Shown: in pieces, positions 1-6,893 of the stretch
Position numbering within the stretch: the first letter of the stretch is position 1
Layout of the letters: every line of letters starts with the position of its first letter
Assembly: GCA_003644825.1 (NCBI GenBank)
Contig: QNDJ01000045.1
Span: 1 to 8,727 of the forward strand
Direction: 5' to 3'
Source: B21-G16 sp003644825 [NCBI: Candidatus Zhuqueibacterota bacterium]
GTDB lineage: Bacteria > SM23-31 > B21-G16
DNA length: 8,727 nucleotides
Program-made: the position numbers and the translations under genes
Notes under the pieces: model-generated
Database searches by the model: none
Seen by the model: only the letters and a program-made list of their open reading frames with translations
What the model was told of the DNA's origin: nothing

Positions 1-327
1 GTTTTTGGTTTTGACCATACAGATGCTGGTGCCTGGCTGTCAGAAAAATGGAAATTACCCGACAGGATTCTTAAACCTATAAAATTCCATCACAAATCTA
101 AAAATATACCTGAAAATTTCTTAAAAGAAATCTATATAACGAGCATTGCTGATTACCTTGTGAAAAAGAATAATGTCGGATATAGTGGAGATAGTAAAAC
201 CCCTATCTTAAATAAAGATGCTATCAGAGAATTGAATTTGAAAGATAATGATCTTTTATTGTTCTCTAAGGAACTTATTAAATTGAAACCCAAAATAGAG
301 TCCTTCTTAAAAATATTAATTAAATAA
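1..327 (+). CDS. HDOD-domain signalling protein, C-terminal fragment (5' end outside window)
   Basis: The reading frame is open from the first base and ends at TAA 325-327, giving the last 108 residues of a protein. The visible start reads FGFDHTDAGAWLSEKWKLP, followed by an isoleucine-rich helix and a paired His-His (KFHH, about residues 29-32). This GxxHxxxGxxLxxxWxLP...HH pattern is the C-terminal signature of HDOD domains, which are related to HD phosphohydrolases but usually lack the full metal site. The remaining ~70 residues (EIYITSIADYLVKK, then a charged helical tail) resemble the helical end of such proteins. HDOD proteins usually act as regulatory or scaffold modules in bacterial signalling, and many carry extra N-terminal domains, which would lie upstream here. 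It lies 5' of a response-regulator gene on the same strand, so a signalling link is possible, but the 311-bp gap suggests separate transcription. No catalytic activity is claimed. Confidence 0.82.
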   Translation, partial: VFGFDHTDAGAWLSEKWKLPDRILKPIKFHHKSKNIPENFLKEIYITSIADYLVKKNNVGYSGDSKTPILNKDAIRELNLKDNDLLLFSKELIKLKPKIESFLKILIK

Positions 328-511
328 ACTGTACTTTTTTCACTCCATTAGAAATTTTGTTCATCCTTTAATTTTTTTATTTTCAGGTTATTCTTGCTGT
401 TCTTTTATATAAATTCCCCGGTTGGTAATCTGAATCTGTTTAATTATAAATAACTCACATTTATTAACAAGTATATTTCACAAGAAAAGCTCATTGTTTT
501 TTTCGGTTGTT

Positions 512-528
512 TTTTGTTACAAACAAAA
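512..528. repeat. Perfect 7-bp inverted repeat with 3-nt centre
   Basis: TTTTGTT, a 3-nt ACA centre, then AACAAAA form a perfect inverted repeat. It holds only one G:C pair per arm, so an RNA hairpin would be weak. A dyad of this form could be a DNA-binding site. It sits just upstream of the better-placed promoter candidate at 537-565, where an operator could lie. In such an AT-rich region a chance match is quite possible. Confidence 0.3.
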
Positions 529-536
529 TACTTCTA

Positions 537-565
537 TTGAGATTATTTTTCATTTCTTTTATTGT
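537..565 (+). promoter_or_regulatory. Candidate sigma70-like promoter upstream of porX
   Basis: TTGAGA (537-542) matches the -35 consensus at five of six positions. A 17-nt spacer separates it from TATTGT (560-565), which matches the -10 consensus at four of six. Transcription would start near 572, giving a leader of about 67 nt that includes the CCCTGCAGGG palindrome. Matches of this quality are common by chance in AT-rich DNA, and the promoter consensus of this lineage is unknown (Bacteroidota use a different one). Confidence 0.22.
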
Positions 566-575
566 AAAAATATAA

Positions 576-585
576 CCCTGCAGGG
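576..585. repeat. 10-bp perfect GC-rich palindrome
   Basis: CCCTGCAGGG is perfectly self-complementary and stands out as one of the few GC-rich stretches in a very AT-rich gap. It lies 54 bp before the preferred porX start. With no loop it cannot form a good intramolecular hairpin and no T run follows, so it is not a terminator. A dimeric regulator site, or chance, are the alternatives. The flanking bases do not extend the symmetry. Confidence 0.4.
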
Positions 586-602
586 AAGTCCTTAATAAAT
601 CC

Positions 603-631
603 TTGATTATTTCTTATTTTTCTAATATATT
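603..631 (+). promoter_or_regulatory. Candidate promoter giving a leaderless porX mRNA
   Basis: TTGATT (603-608) and TATATT (626-631) are separated by 17 nt and match the -35 and -10 consensus at four and five of six positions. Transcription from here would start at about 637-640, almost exactly on the porX ATG at 639. No Shine-Dalgarno sequence precedes that ATG. The region is so AT-rich that this may be coincidence. Confidence 0.22.
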
Positions 632-638
632 TAAAAAT

Positions 639-2195
639 ATGAATATTAAAGCAAAAATACTCTGGGCAGATGATGAGATAGATCTTTTGAAGGCTCATTT
701 GCTTTTTCTTGAGGAAAAGGGCTATTCTGTTCAAACGGTAACAAATGGTGAAGATGCAGTTGCTTTTATGCAGAAAGAGGATTTCGATATTGTATTTCTG
801 GATGAAACAATGCCCGGTATGGATGGTTTAGAAGCACTTGTCAGAATAAAAGAAATCAAGCCAGGTGTTCCAGTTGTGATGGTAACGAAAAACGAAGAAG
901 AAAGCTTGATGGAAGAAGCAATTGGCTCAAAAATTGATGATTATCTGACAAAACCTGTGAATCCGAGTCAGCTCTTGCTTTCCTGTAAAAAATGTCTTGA
1001 AAAGAAAAGAATAAAAAAAGAGAGAATTTCCAGAAAATATGCAGAAAAATTTTCAGAAATATACCAGATACTTAATAATCAACCTGATTTTAAGAACTGG
1101 ATGGATTTGCATATTCGATTGTGTGAATGGGAAATTGAGATTGATGAATACCCTGATATGGGAATGACCGATACTTTAACAGACCTCAGAAAAGAGTGTA
1201 ATTCTCTTTTTTCAAGATATGTTGAGAAACATTACAGGGAATGGATATTTGGAAATAATAGACCTGAACTTTCTATTGATGTTGTTCCTTCACATATTAT
1301 TCCTGAGTTAAAGAATGGTAAAAAGGTGGTATTTATAGTGCTTGATTGTATCAGATTGGACCAGTGGCTTGTTATTGAACCGTATTTATATGATTATTTT
1401 AATATTGAAAAGGAATATTATTTTTCAATTCTTCCGACGGCTACACCATATTCAAGGAATTCTATGTTCAGCGGGCTCTTTCCCCGAGAAATTGAAAAAC
1501 GTTATCCAGACATCTGGCAGGAATGGGATGATGAAGACGATAGTAGAAATAGACACGAAAAAGAGTTGCTTGATATTCTATTAAAGAAAAATGGAGTGAA
1601 TCTAAACCCTGAATTAAAATATGTAAAAATACTTAATGTGGATGATGCAAAAACTCTGGAAAGAAACCTTTCATCTTTTCTAAATCTTCAATTGCTTGTA
1701 ATTGTGATAAATTTTGCGGATCTTCTTGCTCATAAGAGAAGTGAGTCAGAAGTATTAAAAGAGATTACCAAAAACGAGTCTGCTTACAGGTCTGTTACCC
1801 GTTCCTGGTTTGAACATTCATCACTTTTTTACATACTGAGGAATATTGCAGGAAAAGAAAATATTGTTTTTATAACATCAGACCACGGAAGTATAAGAGG
1901 CAAGAGAGGAACCAAAGTAATTGGAGACAGGGAAACATCACCTAATTTAAGGTATAAGTATGGGAGAAATTTGCAGGTAGATCCCAGAAATGCTATTGTA
2001 ATTAAAAATCCTTATGATTACAGACTACCTGAAAGAAATATTAACTGTCAGTATATTATTGCCAAGGAAGATTTTATTTTTCTTTATCCTACAGGGTATC
2101 ATCATTATTATAACCTGTATAAAGACAGTTTTCAGCATGGTGGTGTTTCACTTGAAGAGATGGTTTTGCCAATTGTTAAACTCATTGGAAAATAG
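639..2195 (+). CDS. porX: PorX-like response regulator with PglZ/alkaline-phosphatase-type output domain
   Basis: The 518-residue product begins with a CheY-type receiver: acidic pair D11/D12, predicted phosphoacceptor D55 in IVFLDETMPG, T83 and K105 (DYLTKPVNP). A helical linker spans roughly 125-215. An alkaline-phosphatase-superfamily PglZ domain follows, with metal-site candidates D236 (VLDCIRLDQW), T267/T269 (ILPTATPYSRNSMFSG), D361 and H365 (NFADLLAH), D415-H416 (TSDHGS) and H500 (FQHGG). This order matches PorX, which in Bacteroidota regulates type IX secretion and has been reported to act as a phosphodiesterase on oligonucleotides. All expected catalytic positions appear intact, so an active, phosphorylation-controlled enzyme is inferred. 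There is no DNA-binding domain. The ATG at 639 is preferred because homologs start just before KILWADDE; an in-frame TTG at 603 would add 12 hydrophobic residues. tsaE follows after 5 nt. The partner kinase and any type IX genes are not in the window. Confidence 0.9.
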   Translation: MNIKAKILWADDEIDLLKAHLLFLEEKGYSVQTVTNGEDAVAFMQKEDFDIVFLDETMPGMDGLEALVRIKEIKPGVPVVMVTKNEEESLMEEAIGSKIDDYLTKPVNPSQLLLSCKKCLEKKRIKKERISRKYAEKFSEIYQILNNQPDFKNWMDLHIRLCEWEIEIDEYPDMGMTDTLTDLRKECNSLFSRYVEKHYREWIFGNNRPELSIDVVPSHIIPELKNGKKVVFIVLDCIRLDQWLVIEPYLYDYFNIEKEYYFSILPTATPYSRNSMFSGLFPREIEKRYPDIWQEWDDEDDSRNRHEKELLDILLKKNGVNLNPELKYVKILNVDDAKTLERNLSSFLNLQLLVIVINFADLLAHKRSESEVLKEITKNESAYRSVTRSWFEHSSLFYILRNIAGKENIVFITSDHGSIRGKRGTKVIGDRETSPNLRYKYGRNLQVDPRNAIVIKNPYDYRLPERNINCQYIIAKEDFIFLYPTGYHHYYNLYKDSFQHGGVSLEEMVLPIVKLIGK

Positions 2196-2200
2196 ACTTG

Positions 2201-2620
2201 ATGGTGATATCAAGAAGTAGCCGGGAAACTTATAGATTAGGTATAGAGATTTCTAAAATTTTAAAAATAAAAGATATTGTTTCAATATATGGAGAGCTTG
2301 GAACAGGGAAAACGAGGATTATCCAGGGTATTTGTAGGGGGCTTGGTGTGAAAGAGAGGGTTACAAGCCCTTCTTTTGCATTAATAAATGAATATTCAGG
2401 AAAATTAAAAGTATATCATTTTGATTTTTTCAGAGTAAATAGTTTATCTGAAGCAATGGAACTCGGTTGTATTGATTATTTTTATGATGATGGTATCTGT
2501 CTTATAGAATGGCCTGAAAAAATTGAGAAACTTCTACCTGAAAAAAGAATTAATGTTATTATTCAATACCATAAAGAAAGAAAGAATTGGAGAAGGATAG
2601 AAATAATAAGGAACCCCTAA
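2201..2620 (+). CDS. tsaE: tRNA t6A37 threonylcarbamoyladenosine biosynthesis ATPase TsaE
   Basis: This 139-residue cytoplasmic ATPase belongs to the TsaBDE complex that, with TsaC, makes N6-threonylcarbamoyladenosine at position 37 of ANN-decoding tRNAs. The P-loop GELGTGKT is at 31-38. It is followed by the family motifs TSPSFALINEY (55-65), HFDFFRV (73-79) and LIEWPEKIEKLLP (101-113), where the Glu-Trp pair is characteristic. Length is normal (E. coli 153). The ATG at 2201 is chosen because GGAA at 2187-2190 lies 10 nt upstream; a TTG at 2198 directly before it is the alternative. It starts 5 nt after the porX stop and its 3' end overlaps or abuts tsaB, which suggests translational coupling. 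Confidence 0.95.
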   Translation: MVISRSSRETYRLGIEISKILKIKDIVSIYGELGTGKTRIIQGICRGLGVKERVTSPSFALINEYSGKLKVYHFDFFRVNSLSEAMELGCIDYFYDDGICLIEWPEKIEKLLPEKRINVIIQYHKERKNWRRIEIIRNP

Positions 2621-3282
2621 TTTTAGGATTGGAGACTTCTTATAGGATTTGTGGTGTATCACTTACAAGAGGTGAAAAGTTAATAGCTGAATTGAACATT
2701 GATGCATACAGGTCTCATACTGAAAAACTTCTAAATTTGATTATAGACCTATTGAGATATGCTGAAATGGAACTTAAAATGGTGGATTTAATAGCGGTTT
2801 CGATTGGACCGGGTTCTTATACAGGATTAAGAGTTGGATTGAGCACTGCAAAAGGATTGGCTTTTAGTCTTAACAGACCGATTGTGGGTGTAAGAACCCA
2901 TCTGGTACTTGCTTATCCTTTTAGAAATTATGCAAGATGGCTATGTTCAGTAATACCTTCAAAATCTGGAGAGATTTACAGGGTTTATTTTGAGTTTAGA
3001 AATGGAAAATGCAAAAAACAGGAAGGTATGGGGGCAATTAAACTTGAGGAGTTCTATTCCGAATTGAAAAAGAAAAAGCCTGCTATATGTGGTATTGTTG
3101 ACGGGCTTGATTTAAATTATCTGGAGAATTTTGTTGGTTGTCAGTTTTTAAGTAAAAAAGGTTCATTTCCTGAAAGTTATTATGTTAGTGTTTTAGGATA
3201 CGAGAAATATCTGGCTGGTGATTTTTCAGATATTATCACCCTGGAACCATTTTATATAAAAGATTTTCCAGATAGAAAATGA
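2587..3282 (+). CDS. tsaB: tRNA t6A biosynthesis complex subunit TsaB
   Basis: TsaB is the catalytically inactive ASKHA-fold partner that dimerises with TsaD in t6A synthesis. The signature GPGSYTGLRVGLSTAKGLA (residues 74-92, counting from the TTG) and the first strand LILGLETS (11-18) identify it. The HTEKLLNLI segment (44-52) also fits. Length is 231 residues from TTG 2587, normal for the family. The start is uncertain. TTG 2587 overlaps tsaE by 34 nt and adds about ten polar residues before the first strand, and the purine-rich GGAGAAGG at 2589-2596 would then lie inside the gene. An in-frame ATT at 2620, six nt after AAGGAA (2608-2613), would give a 220-residue protein beginning M-L-G-L-E-T-S, the usual family start. 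The 3' end overlaps rimI by 4 nt (ATGA). TsaD must be encoded elsewhere. Confidence 0.92.
   Translation: MEKDRNNKEPLILGLETSYRICGVSLTRGEKLIAELNIDAYRSHTEKLLNLIIDLLRYAEMELKMVDLIAVSIGPGSYTGLRVGLSTAKGLAFSLNRPIVGVRTHLVLAYPFRNYARWLCSVIPSKSGEIYRVYFEFRNGKCKKQEGMGAIKLEEFYSELKKKKPAICGIVDGLDLNYLENFVGCQFLSKKGSFPESYYVSVLGYEKYLAGDFSDIITLEPFYIKDFPDRK
2608..2613 (+). promoter_or_regulatory. Candidate ribosome binding site for an ATT start of tsaB
   Basis: AAGGAA ends six nt before an in-frame ATT at 2620-2622, whose first base is also the last base of the tsaE TAA. The spacing is good for a Shine-Dalgarno sequence, and no ATG, GTG or TTG lies at a suitable distance that would preserve the first beta strand. 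It matters because it would decide the tsaB start. Confidence 0.35.
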
Positions 3283-3737
3283 AAGTTATAATCAGGCGGA
3301 TGAGATTCTCAGATGTAGAAGAGGTGAGCACCCTTGAAAAAGAAATATTCAGTAATCCCTGGTCTAAATATAGTATAATGCAAAATTTATTTCATTCAGA
3401 TGTATGTTTTTCTTTTGTAGCAGAAGTTGATAAAAAAATAGCAGGATATGCTTTTACCTGGATAGTTAGGGATGAACTTCATATTGGTAATATAGCTGTA
3501 AAAAAGGAAATGAGAAGAAAAAAAATTGCAGAGTCTTTGATGAAGAAAATAATTGAAAAAGGAAGAATATATGGTTGTTCTTATGCTTATCTGGAGGTTA
3601 GAAAATCTAATGAAGCAGCTATTTCTCTCTATAAAAAGTTTGGTTTTGTAAAAAATGGAGTCAGGAAAAGATATTATCCTGATAATAATGAAGATGCTAT
3701 AATAATGTTTAAGTATTATAAAAATAAGAAAAAATAA
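3279..3737 (+). CDS. rimI: Ribosomal protein S18-alanine N-acetyltransferase RimI-type GNAT
   Basis: This 152-residue GNAT-family acetyltransferase resembles RimI, which acetylates the N-terminal alanine of ribosomal protein S18. The N-terminal RRMRFSDVEEVSTLEKEIF, NPWS at 27-30, HIGNIAVKKEMRRKKIA (68-84) and the C-terminal LEVRKSNEAAISLYKKFGF (105-123) are all family-typical. E106 and Y118 align with the general base and general acid known from E. coli RimI. The acetyl-CoA pyrophosphate loop normally reads R-x-x-G-x-G/A but here is RRKKIA (79-84), with lysine in place of the conserved glycine. The gene overlaps tsaB by 4 nt (ATGA) and has no clear Shine-Dalgarno sequence, so coupled translation is likely. 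The tsaE-tsaB-rimI order is common in bacteria. Another N-acetyltransferase substrate cannot be excluded. Confidence 0.88.
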   Translation: MKVIIRRMRFSDVEEVSTLEKEIFSNPWSKYSIMQNLFHSDVCFSFVAEVDKKIAGYAFTWIVRDELHIGNIAVKKEMRRKKIAESLMKKIIEKGRIYGCSYAYLEVRKSNEAAISLYKKFGFVKNGVRKRYYPDNNEDAIIMFKYYKNKKK

Positions 3738-3739
3738 AA

Positions 3740-4582
3740 ATGGAATGGTTTAAGAGAGTTAAGGAAGGGGTATTTCCTCAAAAGAAAAAAGATTTACCCG
3801 AAGGAATATGGATAAGGTGTGAAAAATGTAAGGAGATTTTATATAGAAAAGAGCTTGAAAAAAACCTTAAAGTATGTTTTAAATGTGGTCATCATTTTAG
3901 AATAGGAGCAAAAGATTATATAAAACTTATTCTTGATAAGGATAGTTTTTCAGAGTTAGATGGGAATTTGAAATCAGTTGACCCATTAAAGTTTAAGGAT
4001 ACAAAAAAATACAAAGATAGATTAAAGGAAGCCATCGGAAAAACGAAAATGAACGAAGCAATTATAACGGGATTTGGAAAGATTAATGGTAGAGATGTTG
4101 TTTTTGGGGCAATGGATTTCAGGTTTATTGGTGGAAGTATGGGGTCGGTTGTAGGAGAAAAAGTGAAAAGAGCTACTGAAAAAGCTATGGATAAAATGTG
4201 TCCGTTAATAATTGTTTGTGCTTCTGGTGGTGCCCGAATGATGGAAGGCCCTATATCATTAATGCAGATGGCAAAAACGAGTACTATGCTTGCGAAATTT
4301 TCTCAGAAAAAGGGTATATATATTACGGTTTTAACTAATCCAACGACAGCAGGTGTAATGGCAAGTTTTGCTATGCTTGGGGATATTATTATAGCAGAAC
4401 CAGGTGCATTACTTGGATTTGCAGGCCCAAGGGTTATAAAACAAACTATTGGTGAAGATCTTCCTGAGGGGTTCCAGAGTTCAGAATTTCTTCAGGAACA
4501 TGGTTTTGTTGACCTTGTTGTTCCAAGAGGAGAATTAAGAAATAAATTGATTGAGATTTTAAATTTCTTTTATCAGGATTAA
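3740..4582 (+). CDS. accD: Acetyl-CoA carboxylase carboxyltransferase subunit beta AccD
   Basis: AccD pairs with AccA to move carboxyl from carboxybiotin to acetyl-CoA, making malonyl-CoA for fatty-acid synthesis. The 280-residue protein has the zinc ribbon with cysteines 27, 30, 46 and 49, followed by the crotonase-fold carboxyltransferase core. Diagnostic segments are GGSMGSVVGEK (131-141), CASGGARMMEG (160-170) and AEPGALLGFAGPRVI (219-233). Length matches the family (about 280-305). The start ATG lies 2 nt after the rimI stop, and the sequence before it is A-rich without a clear Shine-Dalgarno sequence, which suggests coupled translation. accA is not present and must lie elsewhere. Nothing looks degraded. 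Confidence 0.97.
   Translation: MEWFKRVKEGVFPQKKKDLPEGIWIRCEKCKEILYRKELEKNLKVCFKCGHHFRIGAKDYIKLILDKDSFSELDGNLKSVDPLKFKDTKKYKDRLKEAIGKTKMNEAIITGFGKINGRDVVFGAMDFRFIGGSMGSVVGEKVKRATEKAMDKMCPLIIVCASGGARMMEGPISLMQMAKTSTMLAKFSQKKGIYITVLTNPTTAGVMASFAMLGDIIIAEPGALLGFAGPRVIKQTIGEDLPEGFQSSEFLQEHGFVDLVVPRGELRNKLIEILNFFYQD
4575..4578 (+). promoter_or_regulatory. Ribosome binding site supporting a TTG start for surE
   Basis: AGGA lies 8 nt before TTG 4587, inside the last codons of accD. No in-frame ATG or GTG precedes the essential LLTNDDG motif, so this site supports TTG as the surE start. Confidence 0.55.
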
Positions 4583-4586
4583 AAAT

Positions 4587-5351
4587 TTGGAAAAAGAAAT
4601 ACTTCTTACAAATGATGATGGAATTTATTCACAGGGATTATATGCTCTTTATCGGGAGATGAAGAAGCTCGGAAAGGTTACTATTGTAGCACCTGATACT
4701 GAAAAAAGTGCAGTTGGGCATGCAATTACTTTGTCGAGCCCTCTAAGGTTCTGGGAAATTAAAAGAAATGGAAGAGTTTTTGGTTATGCTGTAAATGGAA
4801 CTCCTGCCGATTGTGTAAAAATTGCTGTTAAAGTGATAATGAAAAGAAAGCCCGATATTGTTATTTCCGGTATAAATAGGGGACCTAATACTGCAATGAA
4901 TGTTATTTATTCTGGAACAGTGTCGGCAGCAACCGAAGCTTCTATTCTGGGGATATATTCTTTTGCCGTTTCTCTTACATCAAGGGAATATGATGATTTT
5001 TCAGCTTCTGCCTGTTTTTCTAAAAAATTAGCTAAAAAAATCTTCAGATACGGGCTCCCTGAAGGAACCTTCCTAAATGTTAACATTCCCCCCGGGAAAA
5101 AAGAAGATATAAAAGGTGTTAAAATTACTTCTCAGGGAAAAGGAAGATTTATCGAAGAATTTGAAAAAAGAGTTGACCCTTCTAAAAGAAGTTATTACTG
5201 GTTGAAGGGAGATAGACTGGAAATAGATGAAGATGAAAATGTTGATGAAGTTGCAATTAAAAATGGAAAAATATCTATTACACCCATTCATTATGATATG
5301 ACAAATTACTCTGTTATAGAGTTATTTAAGAACTGGAACTTAACGATATAG
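4587..5351 (+). CDS. surE: 5'/3'-nucleotidase (survival protein) SurE
   Basis: SurE is a metal-dependent cytoplasmic phosphatase that removes phosphate from nucleoside 5'- or 3'-monophosphates; some members also hydrolyse short polyphosphate. The 254-residue product starts at TTG, directly before the strand carrying the metal ligands. The four ligands known from Thermotoga SurE are present: D10 and D11 (LLTNDDG), S41 (EKSAVGHA) and N97 (SGINRGPN). The motif GTPADCVKIA (71-80) and the glycine-rich SGTVSAATEA segment also fit. The C-terminal half carries the long charged insert with WLKGD and the final TPIHYDMTNY typical of the dimer-swap region. It sits 4 nt after accD and 6 nt before guaA. 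In many bacteria surE neighbours pcm, which is absent here. Confidence 0.96.
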   Translation: MEKEILLTNDDGIYSQGLYALYREMKKLGKVTIVAPDTEKSAVGHAITLSSPLRFWEIKRNGRVFGYAVNGTPADCVKIAVKVIMKRKPDIVISGINRGPNTAMNVIYSGTVSAATEASILGIYSFAVSLTSREYDDFSASACFSKKLAKKIFRYGLPEGTFLNVNIPPGKKEDIKGVKITSQGKGRFIEEFEKRVDPSKRSYYWLKGDRLEIDEDENVDEVAIKNGKISITPIHYDMTNYSVIELFKNWNLTI

Positions 5352-5357
5352 TTAGAT

Positions 5358-6893
5358 ATGCACCAGAAATTAATTATACTCGATTTTGGGGGACAGTATA
5401 CTCAATTAATTGCAAGAAGAGTAAGAGAACAGAATGTTTTCTGTGAGATTTATCCATATAATATAAGCTTGTCCCGACTGAATGCACTCAAGCCTGATGC
5501 TATAATACTCTCTGGTGGTCCGATGAGTATTTATGAAAAGGGAGCGCCCAGAATCGATAAAGAGATTCTTGAAATTGGAGTTCCGGTTCTCGGGATATGC
5601 TATGGGCTTTGTATAATTGCTGATATTTATGGTGGGAAGGTTATCGGGGCTACAAAGAGGGAATTCGGAAGAGCTGAATTAAATATTAATGATAATACGG
5701 ACATATTTAAGGGAGTGTCAGATAAAACTATAGTCTGGATGAGCCACGGAGATAGAGTTGTTAAGATTCCGGATTCCTTTGAAATTATTGCATATACAGA
5801 AAATTCACCAATAGCTGCTGTAAGGAATAGAGAAAAAAAATTATTTGGAGTCCAGTTCCACCCGGAAGTGATTCATACAATTGAAGGAAAAAAAATATTG
5901 TCCAATTTTTTGTTTGAAGTTTGTGGTTTTAAAGGTGACTGGACACCTGCGTCCTTTGTCGATGAGACAGTAAAGAAAATTAAAGAGCAGGTTAAGAACA
6001 GTAAAATTATATGTGCATTAAGTGGTGGTGTTGATTCATCCGTAACATCAATACTTGTTCATAGAGCTGTAGGTAAAAATTTAACCTGTATATTTGTCGA
6101 TAATGGTCTATTAAGAGCAGGTGAGAAGGAACAGGTTGAAAATACATTTAGAAGAAATTTTCATGTTAATCTGGTTAGTGTTGATGCATCTGACAGGTTT
6201 TTAAAGAAGTTGAAGGGTATAACTGACCCGGAAGAAAAAAGAAGAATTATTGGAAGAGAGTTTATAAGTGTGTTTGAAGAGGAGGCTGAAAAACTTGGTA
6301 GAGTGGAGTATCTTGCTCAGGGTACCCTTTATCCTGATTTGATAGAGTCTGTATCGTTTAAGGGTCCTTCTGCTACAATAAAAACACATCATAATGTTGG
6401 TGGTTTACCTGAAAAAATGAACTTAAAACTGATTGAACCTTTGAAGGAACTTTTTAAAGATGAGGTAAGAAGGGTCGGTAAAGAACTGGGTATACCGGAA
6501 GAAATACTATGCAGACATCCTTTTCCAGGACCCGGGCTTGGTGTTAGAATAATAGGTGAGGTTACAAAAGAAAAATTAGAAATACTAAGAAAAGCTGATG
6601 AGATATTTATTGATGAAATTAAAAGGTATGGAATATATAATGATATATGGCAGGCATTAACTGTTCTTTTGCCGGTAAGGACTGTTGGTGTTATGGGAGA
6701 TGATAGGACTTATGAGAGTGTAATAGCGTTAAGAGCGGTTACAAGTATGGATGGTATGACGGCTGATTGGTTTCACCTTCCTTATGAGCTTATGGAAATT
6801 TTATCCAGCAGGATTATCAATGAAGTTCGAGGTGTCAATCGGGTGGTTTATGATATAAGTTCCAAACCACCAAGTACTATTGAATGGGAATAA
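5358..6893 (+). CDS. guaA: GMP synthase (glutamine-hydrolysing) GuaA
   Basis: GuaA converts XMP to GMP with ATP and glutamine. The 511-residue protein has an N-terminal class I glutaminase (about 1-190) with the triad C81 (GICYG), H168 and E170 (QFHPE). The ATP pyrophosphatase domain carries the P-loop SGGVDSS (222-228), and the C-terminal dimerisation domain has [24 protein letters not shown] and the ending [10 protein letters not shown]. All are canonical and the length is normal (E. coli 525). The nucleophile elbow reads GICYGLC, where C85 replaces the glutamine found at this position in most class I glutaminases. No Shine-Dalgarno sequence is clear before the ATG; the 6-nt gap after surE suggests coupling. 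glmS starts 1 nt after its stop. Confidence 0.97.

What the first reader, a model, noticed from the sequence alone, without database searches (positions are those of the whole stretch)
639..2620. PorX-type phosphoesterase regulator at the head of a t6A/housekeeping cluster
A receiver-PglZ protein with apparently intact phosphoacceptor and metal ligands lies 5 nt upstream of tsaE, followed without gaps by tsaB, rimI, accD, surE, guaA and glmS. PorX is known mainly as a type IX secretion regulator in Bacteroidota, and oligonucleotide phosphodiesterase activity has been reported. From memory, porX next to tsaE also occurs in Bacteroidota genomes; if so, linkage conserved across phyla would point to a role tied to tRNA modification or nucleotide signalling rather than secretion alone. 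The functional link is inference.
Basis: partly seen in the sequence, partly recalled or inferred. Interest (0 to 1): 0.6.

Follow-up and report, generated by a model that had tools for sequence, protein, structure and literature searches.

The report
PorX secretion regulator beside tsaE gene
The gene is a clear PorX, an enzyme-type switch protein known from a Bacteroidota protein-secretion system; its place next to the tRNA-modification gene tsaE recurs across many related phyla, but the evidence ties it mainly to secretion and a partner kinase, not to tRNA modification.

Summary
Window 639-2195 encodes a full-length PorX (NCBIfam PorX equivalog, 703 bits, cut-off 300; 45% identical to P. gingivalis PorX) with phospho-site and metal ligands intact, 5 nt before tsaE, then tsaB-rimI-accD-surE-guaA-glmS. 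The linkage is old: tsaE follows porX within 400 nt in 62 of 80 loci, at least one in every named group sampled.

The inferred tRNA role is not supported. PorX tracks the type IX translocon SprA (p = 4e-4 in 198 genomes), sprA lies directly upstream of porX in two loci, and the window's genome has SprA and sorting-domain proteins, though no recognisable GldL/GldM motor. Against strict dependence, six SprA-less genomes keep porX, one nearly closed.

By-product: one membrane histidine-kinase family lies directly upstream of porX in eight loci of one PorX clade, has a single strong match in most genomes searched, and is missing together with PorX more than chance gives (p = 2e-5). Its layout matches published PorY; hits of NCBIfam's PorY model do not. 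Most likely PorX is this kinase's output; tsaE is probably an old operon neighbour.

The parts
1..327 (+). C-terminal piece of an HDOD-domain protein, cut by the contig end
   Evidence: PF08668, 28 bits
639..2195 (+). porX: receiver - helical linker - PglZ (alkaline-phosphatase fold) protein, 518 aa
657..977 (+). receiver domain (residues 7-113), phospho-acceptor D55
1320..1898 (+). PglZ domain core (residues 228-420) with D236, T269, D361, H365, D415, H416; the last ligand H500 lies beyond it
2201..2620 (+). tsaE (t6A ATPase subunit), ATG 5 nt after the porX stop (a TTG at 2198 is also possible)
2587..3282 (+). tsaB (t6A dimerisation subunit)
   Evidence: TIGR03725
3279..3737 (+). rimI-type acetyltransferase
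   Evidence: TIGR01575
3740..4582 (+). accD
   Evidence: TIGR00515
4587..5351 (+). surE nucleotidase
5358..6893 (+). guaA
6895..8724 (+). glmS (a TTG start at 6880 is also possible)

Best explanation
The gene is an orthologue of PorX: a cytoplasmic response regulator whose receiver is phosphorylated by a membrane histidine kinase of the PorY type, which makes it dimerise and adjusts a metal-dependent phosphodiesterase domain, with protein secretion through a SprA-based type IX translocon as the main controlled process. Shown here: the orthology, the intact residues, SprA and sorting-domain proteins in the same genome, and the co-occurrence of PorX with SprA and with one kinase family. Inferred from published work on Bacteroidota PorX: phosphotransfer, dimerisation, phosphodiesterase activity. 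Inferred here: the kinase family is the partner (its layout is that published for PorY). The tsaE linkage is best read as an ancient shared transcript inherited by descent, not as a biochemical partnership.
For: Orthology and residues. SprA_N in 45 of 47 handles, two of which look like one genome, so 44 of 46, own included; these handles are genomes of PorX loci or of the window's phylum, so the figure is not a test by itself. In 198 class genomes: PorX (E <= 1e-60) and SprA both 182, PorX only 3, SprA only 9, neither 4, Fisher p = 3.6e-4; in 119 order genomes 99, 2, 13, 5, p = 8e-4. sprA directly upstream of porX in L044 and L045, gaps 87 and 51 nt. Two proteins of the own genome end in TIGR04183, 38 and 40 bits against 23. 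Kinase A3: one strong match in 39 of 46 genomes (8 of them supplied the query), other matches at most 127 bits; one match at E <= 1e-55 in 186 of 198 class genomes, missing with PorX in 6, p = 1.7e-5. Layout: 20 residues from TM2 to His193 in PorY (PMC5005315, passages), 15-25 in 23 A3 kinases, 64-70 in 5 NF052314 hits. porX-tsaE loci lie on both sides of the main split of the PorX tree.
Against: Six distinct SprA-less genomes keep porX: G203, G222, G345, G138, G159 and G030 (L057). G203 is nearly closed and also keeps the kinase; G030 lacks it. SprA-positive genomes without a PorX match: 13 of 112 and 9 of 191, and G002, perhaps through incompleteness. Three of the 185 class PorX matches are below the curated cut-off. 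No A3 kinase above generic level in the window's own genome, 84% complete (116 bits); the kinase is present in G001 and G002 without PorX. No GldL or GldM over cut-off outside seven Bacteroidota genomes, so the published PorX-PorL contact cannot be assumed here. Kinase adjacency is confined to one PorX clade and may be one event. The A3 kinases fail NCBIfam's PorY model, and P. gingivalis PorY itself was not available to place. The Fisher tests ignore kinship.
Confidence: 0.6

Rival explanations
1. PorX and TsaE work together: PorX senses or clears a nucleotide tied to t6A synthesis or translation state, and secretion is one downstream consequence.
For: porX-tsaE recurs in 62 of 80 and 27 of 30 loci, median 47 nt from the porX stop to the tsaE domain in these 89, while the flanks differ between Bacteroidota and the rest. 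The pair is also adjacent in four of the six SprA-less genomes that have porX (L242, L245, L246, L057).
Against: tsaE is near-universal in bacteria (recalled) while PorX rings in none of the 14 control genomes at E <= 1e-60, so t6A does not need PorX. In 18 of 80 loci tsaE is further away (5) or not found in the locus (13); 14 of the 18 are Bacteroidota-named. No held paper joining the two turned up.
Confidence: 0.13
2. PorX with its kinase is a general envelope or growth-state signalling pair of these phyla, and type IX secretion is one of several outputs.
For: In the class sample the three SprA-less genomes that keep PorX also keep the kinase, and the four that lack PorX lack it. The PorX-kinase association (odds ratio 26, p = 1.7e-5) is as strong as PorX-SprA (odds ratio 27, p = 3.6e-4). 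A CHASE2-cyclase gene is upstream of porX in two Neomarinimicrobiota.
Against: PorX still tracks SprA overall, and sprA is the one secretion-system gene found directly beside porX. G030 keeps PorX with neither SprA nor the kinase.
Confidence: 0.25
3. The porX-tsaE order is only slow-decaying gene order with no selective reason.
For: Related phyla and mostly vertical tree signal; 18 of 80 loci lack the close adjacency without obvious cost.
Against: The flanks of the pair differ on the Bacteroidota side while the pair stayed.
Confidence: 0.2

Closest known systems
PorX of Porphyromonas gingivalis and Flavobacterium johnsoniae (the PDB chains 7pv7, 8ted and 8p6f are named only 'response regulator'; their assignment is recalled)
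   Same: Full-length architecture, phospho-site, catalytic Thr and metal ligands
   Different: Host lies outside Bacteroidota; no GldL/GldM match in its genome; heads a tsaE-tsaB-rimI-accD cluster
PorY (P. gingivalis, 395 aa, predicted TM 14-36 and 149-173, His193; PMC5005315, passages)
   Same: A3 kinases of ordinary length share size, TM spacing and the TM2-to-His distance
   Different: A3 kinases are encoded directly upstream of porX in eight loci, whereas porX and porY lie far apart in P. gingivalis; NCBIfam NF052314 'PorY family' scores 61.6 and 52.6 bits on two of six scanned, and is outside the best 25 for the other four, cut-off 350
BREX PglZ
   Same: PglZ alkaline-phosphatase-fold domain
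   Different: The window protein scores 117 bits against a 250 cut-off for the BREX-3 PglZ model and has a receiver domain
tsaE-tsaB-rimI cluster
   Same: Common bacterial t6A gene order (recalled)
   Different: porX added at the head

Membership tests
PorX | Receiver + helical linker + PglZ over the full length | tested here: met
PorX | Curated equivalog model above cut-off | tested here: met
   NF052313, 703.5 bits, cut-off 300
PorX | Phospho-acceptor Asp, catalytic Thr, six other metal ligands | tested here: met
   with the residue list of PMC11320123
PorX | Occurs with a type IX translocon (SprA/Sov) | tested here: met
   G000:C42:2784-4040 within a 1960-aa frame
PorX | Binds the PorL/GldL motor subunit | tested here: inconclusive
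   no GldL model match in the own genome; divergence or a gap in the assembly not excluded
PorX | Metal-dependent phosphodiesterase activity; phosphorylation by PorY | not testable with these tools
   needs protein
PorY (for the A3 kinase) | NCBIfam NF052314 above cut-off | tested here: not met
   61.6 bits (L046), not among the best 25 for L055, L048; 52.6 (L184), not among the best 25 for L200, L205; cut-off 350
PorY (for the A3 kinase) | Published (predicted) P. gingivalis PorY layout: 395 aa, two TM, His193 20 residues after TM2 | tested here: met
   23 kinases with frames under 430 aa measured, longer frames left out
Type IX secretion system (own genome) | SprA translocon and C-terminal sorting domains | tested here: met
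   the same ends score higher as FlgD_ig than as Por_Secre_tail in Pfam
Type IX secretion system (own genome) | GldL/GldM motor | tested here: not met
   genome 84% complete
t6A gene cluster | tsaE and tsaB adjacent | tested here: met
BREX PglZ | BREX PglZ model above cut-off | tested here: not met
   117.3 against 250

The most novel reading that the evidence does not exclude
PorX and a PorY-like membrane kinase form a signalling pair older than Bacteroidota and older than, or independent of, the GldL/GldM motor; it was once encoded together (kinase-porX-tsaE-tsaB), still works in about a dozen phyla without a recognisable motor, sometimes without SprA, and its link to tsaE couples secretion control to translation state.
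Probability: 0.22. Interest if true: 0.72.

Novelty: new member of a known kind. Interest (0 to 1): 0.47.

Why it matters
In the papers seen, PorX is a Bacteroidota secretion regulator with a distantly encoded partner kinase, though type IX secretion in other FCB phyla has been suggested in print (PMC11285876, passage). Its presence with SprA and a conserved kinase in many related phyla that lack a recognisable GldL/GldM motor gives a way to ask what the phosphodiesterase is for, and supplies natural kinase-porX pairs for direct phosphotransfer tests. The porX-tsaE linkage is a real, widespread and unexplained association.

Tried and rejected
A regular-expression search for kinases upstream of porX found none; the Pfam scan and clustering then showed the family of eight. 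The idea that the upstream kinases arose in several phyla independently was dropped: on the PorX tree they lie in one clade of 11 rows, 8 with the kinase; of the other three, L050 starts at a contig edge and L057 and L067 do not have it. The two 'Gemmatimonadetes' records in it sit with Latescibacterota and may be misnamed. The NCBIfam PorY model was first taken as the yardstick for PorY and then doubted on layout. The tsaC gene beside the own sprA looked like a second t6A-secretion link, but tsaC was labelled in none of 16 other sprA regions, two of which show only sprA. The 0.5-Mb genome G189 lacks PorX, SprA and kinase; without it p = 0.003 for PorX-SprA and 1.3e-4 for PorX-kinase. Rfam and tRNA scans of the window were empty. 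A promoter-pattern scan of 301-3400 gave 27 sites against 13.6 (sd 3.2) in shuffles and was not followed. No structure was predicted. The paper of Schmitz et al. 2022 is not held.

Full report
What is there. The window is contig C45, 1-8727, of a 2.48-Mb, 493-contig assembly, 83.6% complete. It carries porX (639-2195), tsaE (ATG 2201, 5 nt after the porX stop), tsaB, rimI, accD, surE, guaA and glmS on one strand with gaps of at most 6 nt or overlaps. A 311-nt stretch separates porX from the tail of an HDOD protein at the contig start. The held members of its phylum are six genomes including itself. One of them, G005, has the same SprA place as the genome of L041, titled 'bacterium SM23_31', and is taken to be it; the phylum name SM23-31 is recalled.

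Is it PorX. Yes. It matches solved PorX structures over residues 6-515 and 4-513 (E 6e-150 and 3e-142), passes the PorX equivalog model with 703 bits against 300, is 45% identical to the P. gingivalis sequence and keeps every phospho-site and metal-ligand residue checked (with residue lists from PMC11320123 and PMC10951265, passages). Phosphodiesterase activity of PorX from P. gingivalis and F. johnsoniae is published (PMC10951265, passages); it was not testable here.

Is the linkage real and wide. tsaE lies within 400 nt downstream on the same strand in 62 of 80; of the 18 others, five have it 0.8-5.2 kb away and 13 show none in the locus. By record name: KSB1 3 of 3, Kryptonia 1 of 1, Calditrichota 1 of 2, SM23_31 1 of 1, named Gemmatimonadetes 2 of 2, Melioribacteraceae 2 of 2 (L044 is titled only 'Bacteroidetes' but pairs with L045 at full support), Zixibacteria 1 of 1, Latescibacterota 4 of 4, Rhodothermales and kin 2 of 2, Krumholzibacteriota 1 of 1, Balneolota 4 of 5, Eisenbacteria 1 of 2, Neomarinimicrobiota 3 of 3, unnamed 3 of 4, Bacteroidota-named 33 of 47. 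In one Bacteroidota order 27 of 30 loci have it, one of the other three ending at a contig edge. The median distance from the porX stop to the tsaE domain is 47 nt in these 89 loci. In the window's phylum the order porX-tsaE-tsaB recurs in L004 and L005; L006 is cut; G001 and G002 have no PorX match. The flanks differ: tsaB and often rimI or accD follow in most loci outside Bacteroidota; in Bacteroidota an HD-domain gene lies divergently upstream in the two checked, and a gene that looks like alanine dehydrogenase by eye follows in those printed. In the 47 Bacteroidota-named loci my tsaB profile found one tsaB; its sensitivity there is untested. In P. [quoted passage not shown] A tree of 48 PorX proteins (midpoint root) keeps several groups whole and has porX-tsaE loci on both sides of its main split, so the linkage is best read as inherited from a common ancestor of these phyla.

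Secretion or tRNA. SprA, the type IX translocon, was matched in 45 of 47 handles, two of which look like one genome, so 44 of 46; missing in G001 and G030. Most of these handles were chosen because they hold PorX. The window's genome has it (C42, 1960-aa frame). In about 295 kb sampled from that genome, two long proteins end in TIGR04183 sorting domains (38 and 40 bits, cut-off 23); Pfam scores the same ends higher as FlgD_ig. GldL passes its cut-off in 7 of 46 (G033 has a weak match below it) and GldM in 7 of 46, the same seven Bacteroidota genomes; so 37 of 46 have SprA without a recognisable motor, the own genome included; divergence beyond the models is not excluded. In 119 genomes of one order: PorX and SprA both 99, PorX only 2, SprA only 13, neither 5, p = 8e-4. 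In 198 genomes of the class: 182, 3, 9, 4, p = 3.6e-4; three of the 185 PorX matches there are below the curated cut-off. These tests ignore kinship and incompleteness, only 7 to 11 candidates a genome were scored for PorX in the larger genomes, and the samples share G044, G105 and G151. In L044 and L045 the gene directly upstream of porX is sprA (E about 1e-162). Against a strict tie: six SprA-less genomes keep porX (G203, G222, G345, G138, G159, G030); tsaE is adjacent in four of them, about 1 kb away in one, not found in one. G203 is a 3.93-Mb contig and also keeps the kinase. [quoted passage not shown]

The kinase. Of 31 same-strand upstream genes, 27 were scanned (L044, L045, L087 and L005 were left out); 8 matched HATPase_c, and an all-against-all comparison grouped eight kinases in one family (L043, L046-L049, L052, L054, L055), with the motif AKETAHQLGTP. 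A profile of them finds one strong match in 39 of 46 genomes (178-1016 bits; eight of these supplied the query), other matches at most 127 bits; missing at that level in G000, G006, G011, G030, G036, G037, G045. In the class sample there is one match at E <= 1e-55 in 186 of 198 (at most six candidates a genome scored), and both it and PorX are missing in six, PorX alone in seven, the kinase alone in six (p = 1.7e-5). Of the seven SprA-less class genomes, four lack both and three keep both. It is also present in G001 and G002, where no PorX was found. Published PorY has His193 20 residues after TM2 (PMC5005315, passage). Of the A3 kinases, 23 with frames under 430 aa were measured: 15-25 residues; longer frames, among them most of the eight query kinases, were left out. 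Of eight fetched NF052314 regions five were measurable (four over the cut-off, one from the own genome below it): 64-70. NF052314 is over its cut-off in 5 of 46 genomes. So the A3 family is probably the PorY family in the sense of the experiments, and the far-apart porX and porY of Bacteroidota perhaps a derived state; this needs the PorY sequence, which I did not obtain. Adjacency is confined to one PorX clade (8 of 11 rows), so it may be one event.

Literature. No held paper joining PorX with tsaE turned up (0 papers; 0 papers with three of five terms; one search listed ten of 311, none with PorX). Search listings, starts of abstracts and passages were seen; no paper was read whole.

Verdict. 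A real PorX in a little-known phylum, with an old and unexplained tsaE linkage; secretion signalling remains the best-supported role.

Noticed in passing
L147 (G000:C42) 3-6514: A TsaC/Sua5-family gene (PF01300) lies convergent to sprA with a 4-nt overlap in the window's genome; not labelled beside sprA in 16 other regions.
   Followed up: partly
L002 (G000:C62) 89-994: A second PglZ-domain protein (301 aa) in the same genome, not scanned for other domains, near a 250-aa protein; could belong to a defence system.
   Followed up: no
L065:3496-5910 and L075:3493-5907: In two Neomarinimicrobiota a CHASE2 plus adenylate/guanylate cyclase gene lies directly upstream of porX (domains called on L065; L075 clusters with it and has the same length).
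   Followed up: partly
NCBIfam NF052314 hits L234, L237-L239, L241: The 'PorY family' model matches kinases with 64-70 residues between TM2 and His, unlike published PorY, and rings in Bacteroides ihuae, a control without SprA or PorX match; the model's label may be misleading.
   Followed up: partly
L197, L200, L205, L212: In Bacteroidota the A3 kinase is followed by a gene that looks like hemW (radical SAM) by eye.
   Followed up: no
L043, L047: Two records titled Gemmatimonadetes have PorX proteins that sit with Latescibacterota; possibly misnamed assemblies.
   Followed up: no
L154:11071-11976, L158:9710-10639, L162:10125-10955, perhaps L159:7508-8509: A gene of 276-333 aa that looks by eye like an M28-type glutaminyl cyclase directly follows sprA in several non-Bacteroidota genomes.
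   Followed up: no
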